Source: Pseudacidovorax intermedius (lineage in GTDB: Bacteria > Pseudomonadota > Gammaproteobacteria > Burkholderiales > Burkholderiaceae_C). Taken from it: DNA of 64,000 nucleotides. The notes under the pieces are model-generated. The model was not told where the DNA came from. It ran no database searches and was given only the letters and a program-made list of their open reading frames with translations. The stretch is from contig NZ_QQAV01000002.1 in assembly GCF_003350475.1 (NCBI RefSeq), positions 186,001 to 250,000 of the forward strand, in the 5' to 3' direction. Below are positions 29,115 to 36,873 of the stretch, one piece after another. Each line of letters starts with the position of its first letter. Position 1 is the stretch's first letter. A program made the translations under genes and the position numbers.

Positions 29115-29696
29115 ATGATAGGAAAACTCACCGGAACCCTGGCCGAACGCAACCCGCCGCAGATCGTCATCGACTGCGGCGGCGTGGGCTACGAGGTGGA
29201 CGTGCCGATGAGCACCTTCTACAACCTGCCGCAGGTGGGCGCGAAGGTCTCGCTGCTCACGCACTTCATCGTGCGAGAGGATGCCCAGATTCTCTACGGC
29301 TTCGCGTCGGCGGAAGAGCGTGCGGCCTTTAGGCAGCTGATCAAGATCGCGGGCGTGGGGCCGCGCACGGCGCTGGGCATCCTGTCGGGCCTGAGCGTGG
29401 GCGAGCTGGTGCAGGCCATCGCGTTGCAGGAGCCGGGCCGACTGGTGAAGATTCCCGGCATCGGCAAGAAGACGGCCGAGCGCCTGCTGCTGGAGCTCAA
29501 GGGCAAGCTGGGCGACGCCGTGGGCACCGCCGGCGCTGCCGCCCAGCCCGCCAGCGACGCCCAGGCCGACATCCTGCAGGCCCTGCTGGCGCTGGGTTAC
29601 AACGACAAGGAAGGCGCTGCCGCCCTCAAGGCCCTGCCCAAGGACGTGGGCGTGAGCGAGGGCATCAAGATGGCGCTGAAGGCGCTGGCGAAGTAG
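29115..29696 (+). CDS. ruvA: Holliday junction helicase subunit RuvA
   Basis: Binds four-way junctions and loads the RuvB motor. The 193-residue protein begins MIGKLTGTL and has two helix-hairpin-helix motifs ([31 protein letters not shown]). The C-terminal RuvB-binding domain ([17 protein letters not shown]) follows a flexible linker. Unusually, ruvB is not next to it but 6.1 kb downstream beyond the lipid cassette. Confidence 0.97.
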
Positions 29697-29788
29697 GCGC
29701 TCAGGTTCCGCTGACTTTTGCTCGAAAGGCCGCGGAGCAGGCCACGCGTGGACATCCGCGGAACCGGCGTTGCCGGGCCGCTGGATGT

Positions 29789-29852
29789 GCCCCCTTGAGG
29801 GGGGAGGCGGAGCGCGAAGTGCGAAGCCTGGGGGTGGGTCAAGGAACCCACC
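29789..29852. repeat. Comamonadaceae-type short palindromic repeat
   Basis: Contains CCCCC-TTGA-GGGGG (29790-29803), then a GC-rich arm around GGCGGAGCGCGAAGTGCGAAG, then GGTGGGT / ACCCACC (29833-29852) closing over the last codons of ynbB. The composition and order match the short intergenic repeats seen many times in Comamonadaceae genomes. It lies exactly between ruvA and the inserted lipid cassette. Copy number in the genome cannot be counted here. Confidence 0.6.
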
Positions 29853-30786
29853 AATAGTGGAGCGCGTGGAAGTACATCGGCGCGGCAAAGATCACCGAAT
29901 CCAGCCGGTCCAGCATGCCGCCGTGGCCTTCGATCATGGTGCCCCAGTCCTTCACGCCGCGGTCGCGCTTGATGGCGGACATCACCAGCCCGCCGAAGAA
30001 GCCCATCACGCAGATCATGAAGGCCATGAGCGCGGCCTGCCAGGGCGCGAAGGGCGTGGCCCACCATAGCGCCGCGCCCAGCAGCGTGGCGCTGGCCACG
30101 CCGCCGATGAGCCCTTCCCAGGTCTTGGAAGGCGACAGCTCCGGCGCCACCTTGCGCTTGCCCAGCAGCTTGCCCCACACGTACTGCAGCACGTCGCTGC
30201 CCTGCACCACGATCACCAGGAAGGCGATCAGCAGCAGGTTGCGCCCCTCGAAGCCGGGGATGTTCAGCGTCAGCAGCGCCGGCACGTGGCTGATGCAGAA
30301 CACGCAGACCATCAGCCCCCACTGCACCTTGGACGTGCGCTCCAGGAAGCGCTGCGTGTCGCCGCCCAGGGCCGACAGGATGGGCAGGATCAGGAACACC
30401 TCCACCGGGATGAAGATGGCGAACATGCCGTACCACTCGATCCACACCAGGAAGTACTGCACCGGCAGTGCCACGTAGAAGGCGGCCGCCATGGCCAGGT
30501 GGTCGCCGCGCCGGGTGTAGGTGAGGCTCAGGAACTCGCGCAGCGCGTAGAACGAGACCAGGTAGAACAGCAGGATCACGCCCAGCTTGCCGAAGGCGAA
30601 GGCGACGCCGATCACGGCCACCATCACCCACCAGGCATTGACGCGGGCGTTCAGGTTGTCGATGACCGAATGGGGCGCGCCATGGGCCACGCGCCACTTG
30701 AGCAGCGCGCCGATGGCCGAGGCCAGTACCAGCACGCCGGCCACGCCGCCGAAGAGCATCAGGGTGGTGTGGGTGATGGGACTCAT
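29839..30786 (-). CDS. ynbB: YnbB-like CDP-diacylglycerol synthase
   Basis: A 315-residue multi-helix membrane protein of the CdsA family, which makes CDP-diacylglycerol from CTP and phosphatidic acid. The C-terminal signature SAIKRDRGVKDWGTMIEGHGGMLDRLDS (268-295) is intact, with its conserved KD, HGG and DRxDS. SPSKTWEGLIGG is the other conserved block. It is the last gene of the cassette and overlaps the acyltransferase by 4 bases. Being in this cassette rather than next to frr/dxr marks it as the YnbB-type paralogue, not the housekeeping CdsA. Confidence 0.88.
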   Translation of the reverse strand: MSPITHTTLMLFGGVAGVLVLASAIGALLKWRVAHGAPHSVIDNLNARVNAWWVMVAVIGVAFAFGKLGVILLFYLVSFYALREFLSLTYTRRGDHLAMAAAFYVALPVQYFLVWIEWYGMFAIFIPVEVFLILPILSALGGDTQRFLERTSKVQWGLMVCVFCISHVPALLTLNIPGFEGRNLLLIAFLVIVVQGSDVLQYVWGKLLGKRKVAPELSPSKTWEGLIGGVASATLLGAALWWATPFAPWQAALMAFMICVMGFFGGLVMSAIKRDRGVKDWGTMIEGHGGMLDRLDSVIFAAPMYFHALHYWWVP

Positions 30787-31487
30787 CGTTCCTCCGCTTT
30801 GTCATGGTCCGGCCGTAGGTCCAGCATGGCCTGCTGCGCGCGCGCCAGGAAAGCGGCCTTGTCCTCGCCGTCGGCCAGCACCACCGGCGCGCCGTAGCGC
30901 ACCGAGCAGGCCAGCGGCACCGGCACCAGCTGCCCCTTGGGCAGCACGCGCCTGAGGTTCTCGATCCACACCGGCACCAGCCGCACCTGCGGGCAGGCGC
31001 GGGCGATGTGGAAGAGCCCGCTCTTGAGCGGCAGCATCACCGCATCGCCGGTGTTGCGCGTGCCCTCGGGGAACATGATCAGCGAATCGCCCGCCTCCAG
31101 CGCCTGCACCATCTGTTCCACCGGATTGGCGGCCGTGCTGCCCGCCGCACCGCTGCCGTCGCGGCGGATCATCAGCGCATTGAACACGTCCTGGCCGATG
31201 AAGCGGCGCAGCCGCGAGGCCAGCCAGTAGTCCTGCCCCGCGACGGGCCGGGTGATGGCCCGCAGGTCGGGCGGCAGCGTGGCCCACACCAGCACGAAGT
31301 CGCCATGGCTCGAATGGTTGGCGAAGTACAGCGTGGTCTCGGCCACCGGCGTGGTGCCGCTCCAGATGGCGCGCACGCCGGTGAGCAGGTTGGCCACCAG
31401 CACGATGGCCCGGGCGGCAACGAAGGCGCCGGCCTGCCGCAGCAGGACGCGCGCGGGCGGTGTGTCGGAGTCGAGGATGTCGTTCAT
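30783..31487 (-). CDS. 1-acylglycerol-3-phosphate acyltransferase, PlsC-like
   Basis: A 234-residue acyltransferase. NHSSHGD (motif I, H-x4-D), MIRRDG (motif II), FPEGTRN (motif III) and LVPVWIEN (motif IV) are all present. It would convert lysophosphatidic to phosphatidic acid or acylate a related lysolipid at the membrane. The ATG at 31487 overlaps the preceding stop, and its own stop overlaps ynbB. The pair could make phosphatidic acid and then CDP-lipid. E. coli ynbABCD lacks this gene. Confidence 0.88.
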   Translation of the reverse strand: MNDILDSDTPPARVLLRQAGAFVAARAIVLVANLLTGVRAIWSGTTPVAETTLYFANHSSHGDFVLVWATLPPDLRAITRPVAGQDYWLASRLRRFIGQDVFNALMIRRDGSGAAGSTAANPVEQMVQALEAGDSLIMFPEGTRNTGDAVMLPLKSGLFHIARACPQVRLVPVWIENLRRVLPKGQLVPVPLACSVRYGAPVVLADGEDKAAFLARAQQAMLDLRPDHDKAEER

Positions 31488-31969
31488 GGCGAAGGCAGGC
31501 CGGCGTGGAGGCCGGCGATGAGGGCGATCAGGACGCAGAGGGTTTGCAGCAGCACGACGCCCAGATGCCGGCGCATCAGGGCCTGCGTGCCGCGCAGGCG
31601 CTCTTCCAGCGGGCGTGGGGTGCCCGGCGACGCGGGGCGCAGGCCCAGCCACGCCAGCGCGTCGTCCAGCGCGGCCAGGTCGGGCAGCGCGCCGCGGCCG
31701 AGGGCTGCGAACAGTCCCTCGTCCAGGTGCAGGCGCAGCGCCAGGTAGCGTTCGGCCAGGCCGAGCATCGCGCCGAGCGACCAGGCGGCAAGGCACAGGC
31801 GGCTGGCAGGCATGGCCCATCCGGCGGCGACCGCCGCCAGGGCAAGGAGGCAGGCGGCCGACAGCAGCAGGCTCCAGGCGGCCACGGGTCGCTGGGCGGC
31901 CAGCCGCGCGGCCAGGGCGGCGCAGCGGCTGCGTGCCTGCGGATCAGGGGGGGACGACGGCAGGGTCAT
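31484..31969 (-). CDS. Small membrane protein of unknown function in lipid cassette
   Basis: A 161-residue protein I do not recognise. It has two close hydrophobic helices (about 30-75, LLLSAACLLALAAVAAGWAM and LCLAAWSLGAMLGL). A soluble, leucine-rich middle (ALGRGALPDLAALDDALAWL) and a third helix near the C-terminus (VVLLQTLCVLIALIAGLHAG) follow. It overlaps its neighbours by 4 bases on both sides, so it is made in step with the PAP2 phosphatase and the acyltransferase and probably works with them in the inner membrane. Confidence 0.8.
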   Translation of the reverse strand: MTLPSSPPDPQARSRCAALAARLAAQRPVAAWSLLLSAACLLALAAVAAGWAMPASRLCLAAWSLGAMLGLAERYLALRLHLDEGLFAALGRGALPDLAALDDALAWLGLRPASPGTPRPLEERLRGTQALMRRHLGVVLLQTLCVLIALIAGLHAGLPSP

Positions 31970-33291
31970 GGATGGCGCGGCAATGGCGCGGGGCTCTGCA
32001 GGGTGGAGAGCGCCGTCCGCCACGGCGCACGCAGCACGATCTGCGGCCGCGCGCGCCGGACCACCGCCTCCGCCGCGGCCGGCTCGGACGCACCGCCGTG
32101 CCGCAGCAGCCAGCCCACGACTGTCGCAGCACTGCGCGAAAAGCCCAGCGCGCAGCAGACCCACACGGCGCCGTCGCCGGAGCGCCGCTGGCCTTCCAGC
32201 ACCGCGACGGCCCGACGCAGCCGGACCGGCGAGGGCGTGGCGAGGTCCAGCATCGGCACGCAGCGGGCGCCCGGCACGCGCGGCAGTTGCAGTTCGGCGC
32301 ACAGGCTCAGCAGCCGCGGCCGGCCGGCGGCCTGCCACTCCGCCTGGGAGGGGAGGCGTCCCAGCCACAAGCCCGGCGCCACCTCCACGCGGGCCGGCAG
32401 CTTGCGCGTCCAGGCCCACGCGTTGACGGCGGCCGCGGCCCGGTAGGGGCCCAGGAGCCAGCGCGCGGCGTAATGCATGCGGCCATGCCGGTCCATGCGG
32501 AAGCCGCGCGCACCGAAGCCGGCGTAGTTCAGCGCCACCAGGGCCAGCGACGCGGTGGGCCAGCCCAGCCACAGGAGCCATCCACCCCCCTGCAGCGCCA
32601 GGGCCAGGCACAGCAGGGCGCCCACCGCGTAGGCCCCGGCCAACCGCCCGCGCCCGCCGTCCCGCGCCCACCGCCAAGCGCGGGGCAGCGCCACCTGCCG
32701 CTCCAGCGGCCACAGCCACAGGCACAGCAGGCCCAGCAGCGCGCCGGTCGGGATGTCGATGAAGTGGTGCTGGTAGGTGGTCAGCACCGAGGCGCAGATC
32801 AGCAGCGTCCACACGTGCAGCACCGCGCGCGCCCAGCGCGGACGGATGAGCTGCCGGTACCAGTCCCACAGGATCACGGCCAGCGCGATGTGCAGCGAGG
32901 GCGCCTGGTTGAAGGGCTTGTCGAAGCCGCGCAGCGCCTCGAACAGGAAGGCGGGCGCGCCCTGGACCGCCGGCTGCCCGAAGCTGAAGCCCAGCGGCCA
33001 GAGCACGAAGCAGCCTACGGCCACGACCTGCGCCGTCAGCAGCCGCGCCGCATGCCGGTCCACGAGATGCCGGGTGCGTCCGAGGAACAGCGACAGCGCG
33101 TAGAAGGCATTGATCGACCAGTACGGAAAGATGGTCCAGGCCCAGAAGGGCAGGCCCCGCTCCCAGTCGAACACCACCGAGGGCACCTGGGCCCGCGTGC
33201 CGGCCCACCAGTTCGCGAGGCCGTAGCTCAGGTAGAAGAAGGGCCCCAGTAGGGCCAGCCAGGCAAGGGCGCGCTTCCAGGGCCGCTTCAT
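31966..33291 (-). CDS. ynbD: YnbD-like PAP2 and dual-specificity phosphatase fusion
   Basis: A 441-residue membrane protein. The N-terminal half has about six helices with PAP2-type motifs FNQAPSLHIAL (PSLH 131-134) and TTYQHHFIDIPTG (His175/His176, Asp179), as in inositol-phosphotransferase-like PAP2 proteins. The C-terminal domain (about 300-441) is a dual-specificity phosphatase with Cys380-x5-Arg386 in CCALGFSRSA. It could move a phospho-headgroup and then remove a phosphate. The same fusion is known as YnbD in E. coli; its substrate is not established. Confidence 0.9.
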   Translation of the reverse strand: MKRPWKRALAWLALLGPFFYLSYGLANWWAGTRAQVPSVVFDWERGLPFWAWTIFPYWSINAFYALSLFLGRTRHLVDRHAARLLTAQVVAVGCFVLWPLGFSFGQPAVQGAPAFLFEALRGFDKPFNQAPSLHIALAVILWDWYRQLIRPRWARAVLHVWTLLICASVLTTYQHHFIDIPTGALLGLLCLWLWPLERQVALPRAWRWARDGGRGRLAGAYAVGALLCLALALQGGGWLLWLGWPTASLALVALNYAGFGARGFRMDRHGRMHYAARWLLGPYRAAAAVNAWAWTRKLPARVEVAPGLWLGRLPSQAEWQAAGRPRLLSLCAELQLPRVPGARCVPMLDLATPSPVRLRRAVAVLEGQRRSGDGAVWVCCALGFSRSAATVVGWLLRHGGASEPAAAEAVVRRARPQIVLRAPWRTALSTLQSPAPLPRHP

Positions 33292-35045
33292 GCCTTCTGC
33301 GCGAGCGAGACGGTGAAGATGCCCCAGCGGTCCACCCGCTGGGCGATCTTGCGGAAGCCCGCGGCTTCCACCAGTTGGTCCATCTCGGCCTGCGTGCGCC
33401 TGCGCATCACCCAGGCCTGGCCCTGGCGGTGGCTGGTGAGCGCCCGGGCGATCATCTCCAGCTGCGGATGCCAGGGCTGGCCGGTGTAGACCAGGTAGCC
33501 GCCGGACTCCATAGCATCGGCCACGCCTGCCAGCGAGCGGGCCACCATGTCGTTGTCGGGGAACAGCTCGTACAGCCCCGACACCACCGCCAGCGTCGGT
33601 CGTGGGGTCACTGCGGCCAGGCTCGCGCGGTCGAAGGCATCGGCCTGCACGAAGCGTGCGATGTCCTGCAGGCCTCGCTGGGCGATGAGCCGTTGCCCAT
33701 CGCGCACGTTGATGTCGCTGTAGTCGCGCAGCAGGATCGACACGGGCGCGACGGCACTGCCTGCCGCGGCATCGAGCACATAGCGGCCATGGCCGGCCGC
33801 GATGTCCATCAGCCGCACCTCGCGGCCTTCGTGGGCAAGCCGGCCCATGGCTTCGCGCAGCAGCTCTTCGACATGCAGCTTGCGCTGGCGGATGCCGCGC
33901 CAGCCGATGGAGTCGAGGTAAGTCCGGTCCACCAGCTGCCCCACCAGCGGTGCGCCCGCCGGCTCGTTGCGGTAGACGTAGTCCAGCGTGCTGCCGGAAT
34001 CGAAGCCGGTGGCGTGGCCCAGGGCGATGCCGCGGGACAACCGGCCGCCCAGGCGCAGGCCGGCGCGCGTGGCGGCCCAGTACAGCCCGCGCGGCGACAG
34101 CGCCGGCAGCGGGGCCGCAAGTGCCCGGGCCTCGTCGGCGGTGAAGCCCAGGCGGTCGGCCGTGCGCAGGTCGGCCGGCGCGGGTGGCGCGTCGAAGAGC
34201 CGCAGGATGAAGCCGCGCACCGCGGCCACGGCGCCGGCCCGGTCGCGCTCGCCCAGCGTGTCGTGGAAGAAGCCGGGCAGCTCCACCTTCTCTTTCACGC
34301 GGCTGCCCAGCTGGTCGAAGAAGCGATGCTGCGGCCCGGGATGCACCACCCAGTCGGCACCGGAGATCAGCAACTGCGTCGGCAGCACGATGGCCTGGGC
34401 GTCGTCGACCACGCGCTCGGCGGCCTCGTACAGGTCGAGCAGGATGTTGACGGCGATGGGCCGTGTGATCAGCGGATCGACCTGGTAGCTGGCGATGCGG
34501 GCCGGGTCGTGCGTGAGGAACTTCGGCTTGACGTAGCTGTTGACGAAGAACAGCCCGCGCAGCCTGTGCATGAGCGCGAGGCCGGGCCGTGCGAAGGGCA
34601 CGTAGAGCTTGACCTTGAAGGCCGGCGAGGCGAGCGTGAGGCCGCGGACCTTGGGCGCGTAGTCGTGCGCCCAGGTCGAGATCAGCACGGCCCCCACGCT
34701 CTGGGCCACGACGTGCATGTCCTGCTCGGCCACGCCGTGCTGCGCGGCGATGTGCTCCACGAAGGTCTGCACGTCGCGCACCGAATGCGCGAAGCTGGGG
34801 CTGTGGCCGCGCGGGCCCGGCGAGCGGCCATGGCCGCGGGCATCCCAGGCGAAGAAGTCGAAGTCGGGCAGGTCCAGCTCGTCCACCAGGTGCGCCATGC
34901 GGGCGCCGTGCTCATGGCCGCGGTGGAAGAGCAGCACCGCCCCACGGCGCGCGCTGCCGGTGGCAGGCCAATGGCGATAGAAAAGCGATTCGCCGTCGTG
35001 CGTCTGGAAGTGCAGTTCCTCGGCGATGCGTGGTGTGGCCGTCAT
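33288..35045 (-). CDS. ynbC: YnbC-like alpha/beta hydrolase and methyltransferase fusion
   Basis: A 585-residue two-domain protein. Residues about 1-290 are a lysophospholipase-like alpha/beta hydrolase with AWDARGHGRS, nucleophile Ser116 in VAQSVGAV, and likely Asp in ISGADWVV and His in FFHDTLGE. Residues about 385-585 are a class I SAM methyltransferase with MDIAAGHGRYVLDAAAG and LRDYSDINV. There is no signal peptide, so it works in the cytoplasm or at the inner leaflet. It overlaps ynbD by 4 bases and follows ynbA by 45. Chemical target unknown; a lipid is likely. Confidence 0.9.
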   Translation of the reverse strand: MTATPRIAEELHFQTHDGESLFYRHWPATGSARRGAVLLFHRGHEHGARMAHLVDELDLPDFDFFAWDARGHGRSPGPRGHSPSFAHSVRDVQTFVEHIAAQHGVAEQDMHVVAQSVGAVLISTWAHDYAPKVRGLTLASPAFKVKLYVPFARPGLALMHRLRGLFFVNSYVKPKFLTHDPARIASYQVDPLITRPIAVNILLDLYEAAERVVDDAQAIVLPTQLLISGADWVVHPGPQHRFFDQLGSRVKEKVELPGFFHDTLGERDRAGAVAAVRGFILRLFDAPPAPADLRTADRLGFTADEARALAAPLPALSPRGLYWAATRAGLRLGGRLSRGIALGHATGFDSGSTLDYVYRNEPAGAPLVGQLVDRTYLDSIGWRGIRQRKLHVEELLREAMGRLAHEGREVRLMDIAAGHGRYVLDAAAGSAVAPVSILLRDYSDINVRDGQRLIAQRGLQDIARFVQADAFDRASLAAVTPRPTLAVVSGLYELFPDNDMVARSLAGVADAMESGGYLVYTGQPWHPQLEMIARALTSHRQGQAWVMRRRTQAEMDQLVEAAGFRKIAQRVDRWGIFTVSLAQKA

Positions 35046-35090
35046 GCGTGATTCGTCCCCGGGGTTGTTGTGAAACTCATCGGCGCCGGC

Positions 35091-35699
35091 TCATCCGGCG
35101 GTGCGCTCGGCCAAGGCGGCGCGCACGCGGCGCACCACCGTCCAGCCCGTGGCCAAGGCCAGCAGCGGCATCAGCCAGGCCGCCGCGGCCGGCAGCGGCC
35201 AGCCCAGGGCCACGTACAGCCCCAATGCGCCGAACACGAAGGCCCGGTCGCTCTTGCCCATCGGCCCGTCGTAGCGGCGGCTGGCGCCGACCGTCGGCCC
35301 CAGCGCGCCCGCGAATTCGGACAGGCCTGCCAACACGATCACCACGCCCACCCAGAAGCCGGAAAAGGGCGCGACCAGGGCGAAGGGCAGGTACAGCGCC
35401 GCGTCGGACACCACGTCCGTCAGCTCGTTGAGGAAGGCGCCCAGCGCGCTCTGCTGGCCGTGCTCGCGCGCCAGCATGCCGTCCACGGCATTGAAGGCCA
35501 TGCGCACCAGCATCCAGAGCGGCACCAGCGCGAAGGCCGCGTGGGAGGGGGCGGCCCAGAACAGCCACAGGCCGAGCGCCACGGAGACGAGGCAGGCCGC
35601 CATCGTGACCTGGTTGGCCGTGACGCCCGCCCGGGCGAGGCGTTGGACCAGAGGGCGGAGCAGGGCCTGGAAGCGGGGCTTGAGCTGGTAGATGGACAA
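35091..35699 (-). CDS. ynbA: YnbA-like CDP-alcohol phosphatidyltransferase
   Basis: A 202-residue inner-membrane enzyme with about six helices. The CDP-alcohol motif is FNAVDGMLAREHGQQSALG followed by AFLNELTDVVSD. Two positions normally Asp in this motif are Asn, as I recall for E. coli YnbA too, so the family may use a different metal or substrate mode. It would attach an alcohol to CDP-diacylglycerol. The start TTG 35699 (MSIYQLKPRFQALLRPL) matches the family N-terminus; no ATG or GTG fits better. It is the first gene of the cassette, 109 bases from the divergent ruvB. Confidence 0.88.
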   Translation of the reverse strand: MSIYQLKPRFQALLRPLVQRLARAGVTANQVTMAACLVSVALGLWLFWAAPSHAAFALVPLWMLVRMAFNAVDGMLAREHGQQSALGAFLNELTDVVSDAALYLPFALVAPFSGFWVGVVIVLAGLSEFAGALGPTVGASRRYDGPMGKSDRAFVFGALGLYVALGWPLPAAAAWLMPLLALATGWTVVRRVRAALAERTAG

Positions 35700-35808
35700 G
35701 GTGTTGGCGATGAGCGGCAGGAGCGGTCGATTCTGCCGCCTGAATGCAGGCTGACCGCGTCCCGGCCGCGGCAGGCGCCGCCTACAATCCGCCGCTTCCC
35801 CCCGCGAC

Positions 35809-36873
35809 ATGTCCATCCACACCGACGACTTCGCCCCGGTACCGCAGCGCGTGGTGTCCGCGGCCCCCGCCTCACCCAACGAAGAAGCCATCGAACGCGC
35901 CCTGCGGCCCAAGCTGCTCCAGGAATACGTGGGCCAGGCCAAGGTGCGCGAGCAGCTCGAGATCTTCATCGGTGCCGCCCGCAAGCGGCGCGAGGCGCTC
36001 GACCATGTGCTGCTCTTCGGCCCGCCGGGCCTGGGCAAGACCACGCTGTCGCACATCGTCGCGGCCGAACTGGGCGTCAACCTGCGCCAGACCAGCGGCC
36101 CGGTGCTCGAAAAACCCAAGGATCTGGCGGCGCTGCTGACCAACCTCGAGCCCAACGATGTGCTCTTCATCGACGAGATCCACCGGCTCTCGCCGGTCGT
36201 CGAGGAAATCCTGTACCCCGCGCTCGAGGACTACCAGATCGACATCATGATCGGCGAGGGGCCGGCGGCGCGCAGCATCAAGCTCGACCTGCAGCCCTTC
36301 ACGCTCGTAGGAGCCACTACGCGCGCCGGCATGCTGACCAATCCGCTGCGCGACCGCTTCGGCATCGTGGCGCGGCTGGAGTTCTACACGGCCGAGGAGC
36401 TCACGCTCATCGTCACCCGCAGCGCCGGCCTGCTCAACGCGCCCATCGACCCCGACGGGGCCTTCGAGATCGCCCGCCGCTCGCGCGGCACGCCCCGCAT
36501 CGCCAACCGGCTGCTGCGCCGGGTGCGCGACTATGCCGACGTGAAGGGCGATGGCCGCATCACCCAGTCCATTGCGCACAAGGCGCTGGCCATGCTCGAC
36601 GTCGACCCGGAAGGCTTCGACCTGATGGACCGCAAGCTGCTGGAGGCGGTGATCCACCGCTTCGACGGCGGTCCGGTGGGCCTGGACAACATTGGCGCCA
36701 GCATCGGCGAGGAGTCCGGCACCATCGAGGACGTGATCGAGCCCTACCTGATCCAGCAGGGCTACCTGCAGCGCACGCCGCGCGGGCGCATCGCCACGCT
36801 CGCGGCTTACCGCCATCTCGGCGTGACCGCGCCCAGCAGCCGCAGCGCCGACGGGGACTTGTTCGGCGGCTAG
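35809..36873 (+). CDS. ruvB: Holliday junction helicase ATPase RuvB
   Basis: The AAA+ motor that drives branch migration with RuvA. 354 residues: Walker [13 protein letters not shown] near 66-77, Walker [12 protein letters not shown] near 117-127, sensor GATTRAGML near 164 and the C-terminal winged helix ending [23 protein letters not shown] at 35783-35788 is a plausible -10. It is separated from ruvA by the oppositely oriented lipid cassette, although in many bacteria the two are adjacent. Confidence 0.98.

What the first reader, a model, noticed from the sequence alone, without database searches (positions are those of the whole stretch)
29839..35699. Six-gene ynb-type membrane-lipid cassette with an added acyltransferase and unknown membrane protein
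The sequence shows a CDP-alcohol phosphatidyltransferase, hydrolase-methyltransferase fusion, PAP2-DSP fusion, small membrane protein, PlsC-like acyltransferase and CdsA-like synthase on one strand. The last five genes are joined by four successive 4-base overlaps. Four of the six correspond to E. coli ynbA, ynbC, ynbD and ynbB, whose joint function is not settled. Together they could make phosphatidic acid, activate it to a CDP-lipid, transfer a headgroup, then phosphorylate/dephosphorylate or methylate it. This is a self-contained route to an uncharacterised phospholipid, or a remodelling system parallel to the housekeeping one.
Basis: partly seen in the sequence, partly recalled or inferred. 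Interest (0 to 1): 0.8.

Follow-up and report, generated by a model that had tools for sequence, protein, structure and literature searches.

The report
Arc1-type bacterial membrane-defence gene cassette
The six-gene lipid cassette is real, and it is the counterpart of a Pseudomonas aeruginosa gene cluster already reported to protect cells against toxins, some of them membrane-destroying, injected by rival bacteria; how its enzymes do this is still unknown.

Summary
In detail: six minus-strand genes at 29839-35699, the last five joined by four ATGA overlaps. The organism is probably Pseudacidovorax. That cluster is arc1A-F, a Gac/Rsm-controlled operon protecting against type VI secretion attack, including lipase effectors. 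Its chemistry is unsolved in the papers I read. All six families occur in 37 of 57 surveyed loci; E. coli ynbABCD is a four-gene form, probably reduced. Most likely it is an inducible branch that acylates, CDP-activates and head-groups a phospholipid to repair or harden membranes. Plain PG synthesis is disfavoured: E. coli YnbD cannot replace PGP phosphatases. Gene A, in all 130 loci carrying it, has Asn at two of the four metal-binding Asp positions of its enzyme family, so its reaction may be unusual. Membership is near certain; mechanism is inference.

The parts
35091..35699 (-). gene A (arc1A / ynbA type): CDP-alcohol phosphatidyltransferase-like, 202 aa, TTG start; motif N70xxD73G..AR...G87xxxN91E92xxD95
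   Evidence: the family's N-terminus fits this start
33288..35045 (-). gene C (arc1B position / ynbC type): alpha/beta hydrolase fused to SAM methyltransferase, 585 aa; Ser116, Asp231, His261 and D414, A416, G418, R421 invariant in 18 aligned homologues
   Evidence: that these are the catalytic and SAM-binding residues is inference from the families
31966..33291 (-). gene D (arc1C position / ynbD type): PAP2 membrane domain fused to dual-specificity phosphatase domain, 441 aa; PSLH, QHHxxD and C380x5R386 invariant in 37 rows; ATGA overlap with C
31484..31969 (-). gene X (arc1D position): small helical, probably membrane protein, 161 aa, no known family; R79, D83, R124, L131 invariant in 49 rows; ATGA overlap with D
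30783..31487 (-). gene P (arc1E position): PlsC-like acyltransferase, 234 aa, with NHxxHxD and FPEGTR; ATGA overlap with X
29839..30786 (-). gene B (arc1F / ynbB type): CdsA-like cytidylyltransferase, 315 aa, with KRD...KD...GHGGxxDRxD; ATGA overlap with P
35809..36873 (+). ruvB, flanking the cassette on the opposite strand (context, not part of the system)
29115..29696 (+). ruvA, flanking the cassette on the opposite strand (context); the cassette lies between ruvA and ruvB
   Evidence: name from recall of the family

Best explanation
This is an Arc1-type antagonism-resistance cassette: an inducible side branch of phospholipid synthesis that helps membranes survive phospholipase toxins injected by other bacteria. 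Proposed path: P acylates a lysophospholipid or lysophosphatidate. B activates the resulting phosphatidate to CDP-diacylglycerol. A moves the phosphatidyl group onto a phosphorylated alcohol. D removes the phosphate and/or exchanges the head group. C methylates the head group and clears an acyl chain or by-product. X holds the membrane enzymes together. The product is a minor glycerophospholipid, probably not plain PG, that replaces or hardens attacked lipid. Shown by sequence: the six families, intact motif residues in C, D, P and B, and correspondence with arc1A-F. Shown by others in P. aeruginosa: the defence phenotype. Inferred: every catalytic step in this order, the product, the role of X, and that the cassette serves defence in this organism.
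For: Correspondence: the published PA2541 and PA2536 deletion primers (PMC8926400, Appendix 3, seen) fall on the start and end of A and of B in L158, with 0, 0, 0 and 1 mismatches. All six genes lie between them in the window's order, at 61, 74, 53, 41 (over only 70 aa), 51 and 71% identity for A, C, D, X, P, B. Phenotype: arc1 mutants are less fit under B. thailandensis T6SS attack; a second deletion in the operon adds nothing; basal expression is very low and Gac/Rsm-inducible. arc1A loss sensitises to V. cholerae, less so when its lipase TseL is inactive, and to A. baylyi carrying only its lipase Tle1; the strain lacking tssM1, arc1A, arc3A and aas was no more sensitive than its parent to Tae1 or Tse2. 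Association: in 300 genomes of the order, 16 of 25 with the YnbC family also carry the Arc3A family PF10101, against 45 of 275 without; 15 of 25 carry T6SS TssC, against 57 of 275. By genus: 14 of 21 against 25 of 114, and 15 of 21 against 33 of 114. PF10101 and TssC themselves are only weakly linked (20 shared, p 0.09).
Against: No lipid product of Arc1 or Ynb is reported in the passages I read. In the V. cholerae assay the quadruple mutant was no worse than the arc3A mutant, so arc1A is described as auxiliary there. The first study could not tie Arc1 to one effector: no single-effector mutant of B. thailandensis relieved the defect, and in the transposon screens one Arc1 gene passed the threefold cut-off for Tle3 and one for ColA, a pore-former. 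Arc1 loss also modestly raised attacker survival, so the effect is not purely defensive. The associations were not corrected for genome size or for ancestry above the genus. The window genome has no PF10101 match, and its Gac/Rsm status was not tested. Gene A departs from its enzyme family's signature, so the head-group step may not occur as drawn.
Confidence: 0.5

Rival explanations
1. Arc1 simply re-makes phosphatidylglycerol: P, B, A and D act like PlsC, CdsA, PgsA and a PGP phosphatase.
For: The P. aeruginosa study says four of the six products have significant homology to PG-synthesis enzymes. D's phosphatase fold also matches PTPMT1 (rank 41; its PGP-phosphatase role in mitochondria is recalled).
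Against: E. coli YnbD did not complement a conditional PGP-phosphatase mutant or a C55-PP-phosphatase mutant (tested alone, without the other ynb proteins added). A matches archaetidylinositol-phosphate and PI-phosphate synthase models (80 and 57 bits) far better than PgsA (23.5 bits), all below cut-off. YnbB overproduction could not replace CdsA (data not shown in that paper).
Confidence: 0.2
2. The cassette makes phosphatidylinositol(-phosphate): A joins inositol phosphate to CDP-DAG and D removes the phosphate.
For: Closest NCBIfam and PDB sequence matches of A are inositol-phosphate enzymes. By alignment the two phosphate-binding arginines of PI-phosphate synthase (R155, R195) correspond to R152 and R191, both invariant in 17 aligned A proteins.
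Against: R94, reported critical for inositol-phosphate binding, corresponds to V96. A90, where a bulky residue cuts activity, corresponds to E92, invariant in the 17. No inositol-phosphate synthase was looked for.
Confidence: 0.12
3. A is not a transferase but a CDP-lipid-binding pseudoenzyme that senses or channels CDP-DAG or damaged lipid for the others.
For: The metal-binding aspartates D1 and D3 are Asn in A of all 130 loci that carry it. In a solved relative D1 and D3 coordinate metal 1 and D3 also metal 2. The three other CDP-alcohol transferases in the same genome have all four Asp.
Against: The proposed catalytic base D4, plus D2, is kept in 129 of the 130; the other (L085) is broken before D4. 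arc1A is required for full defence, which fits either reading.
Confidence: 0.2
4. The cassette is a backup for MPIase-type glycolipid (GlcNAc-PP-diacylglycerol) synthesis.
For: YnbB overproduction raises MPIase in E. coli; a review reports that YnbB restores MPIase but not phospholipid and makes CDP-DAG in vitro.
Against: ynbB deletion leaves MPIase not significantly changed. This role needs none of A, C, D, X or P as far as described. The defence phenotype is not explained.
Confidence: 0.08

Closest known systems
Pseudomonas aeruginosa arc1A-F (PA2541-PA2536), antagonism resistance cluster 1; PMC8926400 and PMC12663445
   Same: Same six genes in the same order, 41-74% identity; the paper describes five of six genes as phospholipid-related and the pathway as probably specialised, the core machinery lying elsewhere
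   Different: Different organism (probably Pseudacidovorax); cassette sits between ruvA and ruvB; no Arc3A-family match in this genome; regulation unknown
Escherichia coli ynbABCD
   Same: Four of the six families, same domain fusions, 38-60% identity
   Different: E. coli has no X or P beside them and uses the order A-B-C-D
Mycobacterial / Renibacterium PI-phosphate synthase (class I CDP-alcohol phosphotransferases)
   Same: Same family by profile; PI-phosphate synthases are the nearest solved relatives of A by sequence
   Different: A has Asn at D1 and D3, lacks R94, and carries Glu at the A90 position

Membership tests
Arc1 cluster | six genes arc1A-F in operon order, homologous gene by gene | tested here: met
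Arc1 cluster | post-transcriptional activation by Gac/Rsm | not tested
   published for P. aeruginosa only
Arc1 cluster | protection against T6SS attack, including lipase effectors | not testable with these tools
   published for P. aeruginosa; not shown for this organism
E. coli ynbABCD | ynbA, B, C and D homologues adjacent and co-directional | tested here: met
   the window has two further genes and a different order
CDP-alcohol phosphotransferase (gene A) | PF01066 domain above cut-off | tested here: met
   38.9 bits against 22
[quoted passage not shown]
   D1 and D3 are Asn in A of all 130 loci that carry it; a canonical activity should not be assumed
PI-phosphate synthase | inositol-phosphate pocket residues R94, R155, R195 | tested here: not met
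   R155 and R195 positions kept, R94 position is Val; alignment-based, no structure of A was predicted
PGP phosphatase (gene D) | dephosphorylates PG-phosphate | not testable with these tools
   the E. coli homologue YnbD failed complementation
CDP-diacylglycerol synthase (gene B) | PF01148 domain and the KD...GHGGxxDRxD signature (signature recalled) | tested here: met

The most novel reading that the evidence does not exclude
Arc1A/YnbA is a CDP-alcohol transferase with a rebuilt metal site (Asn at D1 and D3, a conserved Glu in the acceptor pocket). With its partner proteins it makes an undescribed 'immune' phospholipid, phosphatase-trimmed and methylated, that makes bacterial membranes resist phospholipase toxins; E. 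coli's orphan ynbABCD operon is a reduced version of the same system.
Probability: 0.3. Interest if true: 0.8.

Novelty: new member of a known kind. Interest (0 to 1): 0.5.

Why it matters
It joins two bodies of work: the E. coli ynb genes, studied one gene at a time (YnbB, YnbD), and the P. aeruginosa Arc1 defence cluster, whose chemistry is unsolved. The main texts of the two Arc1 papers I searched hold no word beginning 'ynb'. If they are one system, E. coli K-12 becomes a simple host in which to look for its lipid product, and the negative YnbD result already argues against the PG-synthesis reading. The conserved Asn/Asn substitution in gene A gives a concrete, testable reason to expect unusual chemistry.

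Tried and rejected
Weakened: 'added acyltransferase and membrane protein'. X and P are in the commonest form (37 of 57 survey loci carry all six), and E. coli YnbC sits in a set with X+P-bearing rows. Against a simple story: the X+P label changes at least 10 times on that tree (some of it from contig ends), five long-branched rows (L024-L027, L052) lack X+P, and the root is a midpoint. So loss in E. coli is likely, not proven.

Not found: X as a known fold. It is predicted confidently (mean pLDDT 91.6), but the best PDB match has E 0.68 and the best viral match 0.70; it has no Pfam or NCBIfam match at E 0.1. It may still be an ordinary small helical bundle.

Tried: the PDB search with D's model listed dual-specificity phosphatases in the 50 rows shown, so it gave no separate verdict on the PAP2 domain.

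Tried: the idea that the cassette cut an otherwise joined ruvA-ruvB. Among 10 genomes of the window's family without the YnbC family, ruvA ends within 40 bases of ruvB in 4, about 1.0-1.4 kb away in 2, and is not within the 1.5 kb fetched in 4. So the split is not unique to cassette carriers.

Tried: paper searches. 'ynbABCD' gave no paper. Searches on ynb names gave, besides the papers used, yeast-medium names, B. subtilis genes of the same name and E. coli gene lists (listings). One transposon screen hit ynbB, but ynbB was then found unnecessary for the phosphoglyceride-linked antigen studied (PMC8609368, passages). ynbD appears in one table of E. coli fitness candidates (PMC3855560, one passage). 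PA locus-tag searches gave one paper on the operon itself and scattered single mentions (of the latter only the listing was read). PMC11888443 names Arc1-3 once, as Gac/Rsm targets (one passage).
Full report
OBSERVATION. The six frames are as described. On the minus strand, in order of transcription: A 35699-35091, C 35045-33288, D 33291-31966, X 31969-31484, P 31487-30783, B 30786-29839. The four junctions C/D, D/X, X/P and P/B are ATGA overlaps. Pfam supports A, C, P and B well above cut-off, and D's PAP2 just above. D's DSP domain scores below Pfam's cut-off but matches solved dual-specificity phosphatases by sequence (best 1.5e-06) and fold (best 1.6e-06). X has no Pfam or NCBIfam match at E 0.1. 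The closest named relative of C is from a Pseudacidovorax MAG (95% identity), so the organism is probably Pseudacidovorax (Comamonadaceae).

CONSERVATION. The C family PF12147 passes its cut-off in 25 of 300 genomes of the order, 27 of 398 of the phylum and 13 of 369 of the class (10 of those at over 280 bits); the samples overlap. I fetched 57 loci around the strong hits and 80 named loci from a genome scan that kept its best 80 of 588 relatives. In the 57 survey loci all six families occur in 37; the rest are 5 ACDB, 3 CDX, 2 ACB, 2 ACDPB, 2 C only, 2 ACDX and one each of ACPB, CB, CDXPB, AC. Some of these lie near contig ends. Pooled with E. coli, L158 and the window and de-duplicated (3 rows dropped), 137 loci give 103 with order A-C-D-X-P-B and 7 with A-B-P-C-D-X (spacing not checked, and in L046, L047 and L072 other sequence lies between members). 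The pool is weighted towards Pseudomonas and Variovorax. On a quick tree of 60 C proteins, E. coli YnbC (no X, no P) pairs with one partial locus (L073) inside a set of 8 rows, 5 of which carry X and P (set support 93). The simplest reading is that E. coli lost X and P. But the X+P label changes at least 10 times on the tree, a group of five long-branched rows also lacks X+P, and the root is a midpoint, so the ancestral form is not settled.

IDENTITY. Ting and colleagues (PMC8926400; I read the outline, sections 5 and 6, and found passages) named PA2541-PA2536 arc1A-F. I found the same six-gene locus in one of 25 genomes of a genus (presumably Pseudomonas) by an exact 20-base match to a published PA2536 primer region, took 15 kb, and found that the PA2541 start and end and the PA2536 start and end primer regions fall on the ends of A and B, with 0, 0, 0 and 1 mismatches. 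Window against this locus: A 61%, C 74%, D 53%, X 41% over 70 residues, P 51%, B 71% identity. The main texts of both Arc1 papers hold no word beginning 'ynb'. Figure supplements were not seen, so I do not claim the link is unreported everywhere.

WHAT OTHERS HAVE SHOWN. Arc1 mutants of P. aeruginosa lose fitness under B. thailandensis T6SS attack. A double deletion within the operon is no worse than the single. Expression is low and Gac/Rsm-inducible, and Arc1 is not needed for heat, peroxide, salt or detergent stress. Arc1 loss also modestly raised attacker survival. None of the tested single-effector mutants of B. thailandensis relieved the Arc1 defect; in transposon screens one Arc1 gene passed the cut-off for Tle3 and one for ColA. 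A 2025 study (PMC12663445, passages) found that arc1A loss sensitises to V. cholerae, less so without active TseL, and to A. baylyi carrying only its lipase Tle1. [quoted passage not shown] arc1A was judged auxiliary to arc3A against V. cholerae. In E. coli, YnbB overproduction raises MPIase but cannot replace CdsA, and its deletion has little effect (PMC6362211, passages). A review (PMC7018664, passages) says YnbB makes CDP-DAG in vitro. YnbD failed to complement PGP-phosphatase or C55-PP-phosphatase mutants (PMC7413402, passages).

ACTIVE SITES. C keeps Ser116, Asp231, His261 and D414, A416, G418, R421 in all 18 aligned homologues. D keeps PSLH, QHHxxD and Cx5R in all 37 aligned rows, though its PAP2 C1 region varies. 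P and B keep their motifs. Gene A is the exception. Of 130 loci with A, 126 read N-D-R-N-D at the D1-D2-R-D3-D4 positions. Three more (L025, L026, L052) keep both Asn but change the Arg, and one (L085) keeps both Asn and is broken just after. So D1 and D3 are Asn throughout. In M. tuberculosis PgsA1, metal 1 is held by D1, D2 and D3 and metal 2 by D3 and D4, with D4 as presumed base (PMC6506517, passages); the eight signature residues are called absolutely conserved in PMC4634129 (passages). The three other CDP-alcohol transferases of this genome have Asp at all four positions. Mapping by the alignment and the shared spacing (the program's own alignment puts a gap near D1, so D1 rests on spacing): R155 and R195 correspond to R152 and R191, R94 to V96, and A90 to E92, the last invariant in 17 aligned A proteins. 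This is conserved change, not decay. It means the usual chemistry cannot be assumed and an inositol-phosphate acceptor is less likely. I did not model A.

X. AlphaFold gives a confident model (pLDDT 91.6, pTM 0.82) of five helices, two of them 35 residues long, with no PDB match at E 0.001 (99 weaker matches, best 0.68) and no viral match at E 0.001 (69 weaker, best 0.70). Conserved charged residues (R79, D83, R124) and its usual place after D suggest a scaffold or lipid-handling subunit (inference).

ASSOCIATION. In the 300-genome order sample, the Arc3A family PF10101 (over cut-off) is in 16 of 25 C-positive and 45 of 275 C-negative genomes (Fisher p 7e-7). T6SS TssC is in 15 of 25 and 57 of 275 (p 6e-5). 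By genus: 14 of 21 against 25 of 114 (p 1e-4), and 15 of 21 against 33 of 114 (p 3e-4). PF10101 and TssC are only weakly linked to each other (20 genomes share them, p 0.09), so the links are not simply that rich genomes have everything; still, genome size and ancestry above the genus are not controlled. The window genome has two TssC matches and no PF10101 match.

VERDICT. Membership in the Arc1 kind: about 0.95. That it serves defence in this organism: about 0.6 (inference from the correspondence). That it makes a phospholipid other than plain PG: about 0.45. The system is known; its chemistry, its link to ynb, and the altered site of gene A are what make it worth following.

Noticed in passing
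G000:C1:88150-89880 (L175:67-1797), upstream of ruvC: A second acyltransferase-CdsA-like pair: P paralogue (49.5% identical over 202 aa) and B paralogue (40% over 337 aa). The B paralogue has lost the CdsA signature (KD becomes PH, GHGG becomes TGANG) yet is conserved: found in 8 of 12 sampled genomes of the window's family, with the altered motif printed for 7 and ruvC beside it in 7. It looks like a conserved pseudo-synthase paired with an acyltransferase.
   Followed up: partly
window 29115-36873: The cassette lies between ruvA and ruvB on the opposite strand. The same placement is seen in 10 of the 137 pooled loci (window, Pseudacidovorax, Variovorax, Xenophilus), and ruvB alone is visible in 4 more with the full cassette.
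   Followed up: partly
window 31966-33291 (gene D, residues 101-107): In the PAP2 C1 region the common 'FSFxRP/FTFxRP' reads 'FSFGQP' in 9 of 37 aligned rows (window, Pseudacidovorax, Variovorax, Xenophilus, Hydrogenophaga), so a basic residue of the PAP2 site is lost in this branch.
   Followed up: no
G373 (three C-family matches; L041, L049, L053): One genome of the order carries three YnbC-family genes, one of them very divergent.
   Followed up: no
L048, L052, L021, L068, L069: Variant arrangements in which A, B-P or D lie on the opposite strand to C, so the cassette is not always one transcript.
   Followed up: no
G000:C1:1412130 and G000:C17:96734: The window genome carries two T6SS TssC genes, so the organism is probably itself a T6SS user.
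   Followed up: no
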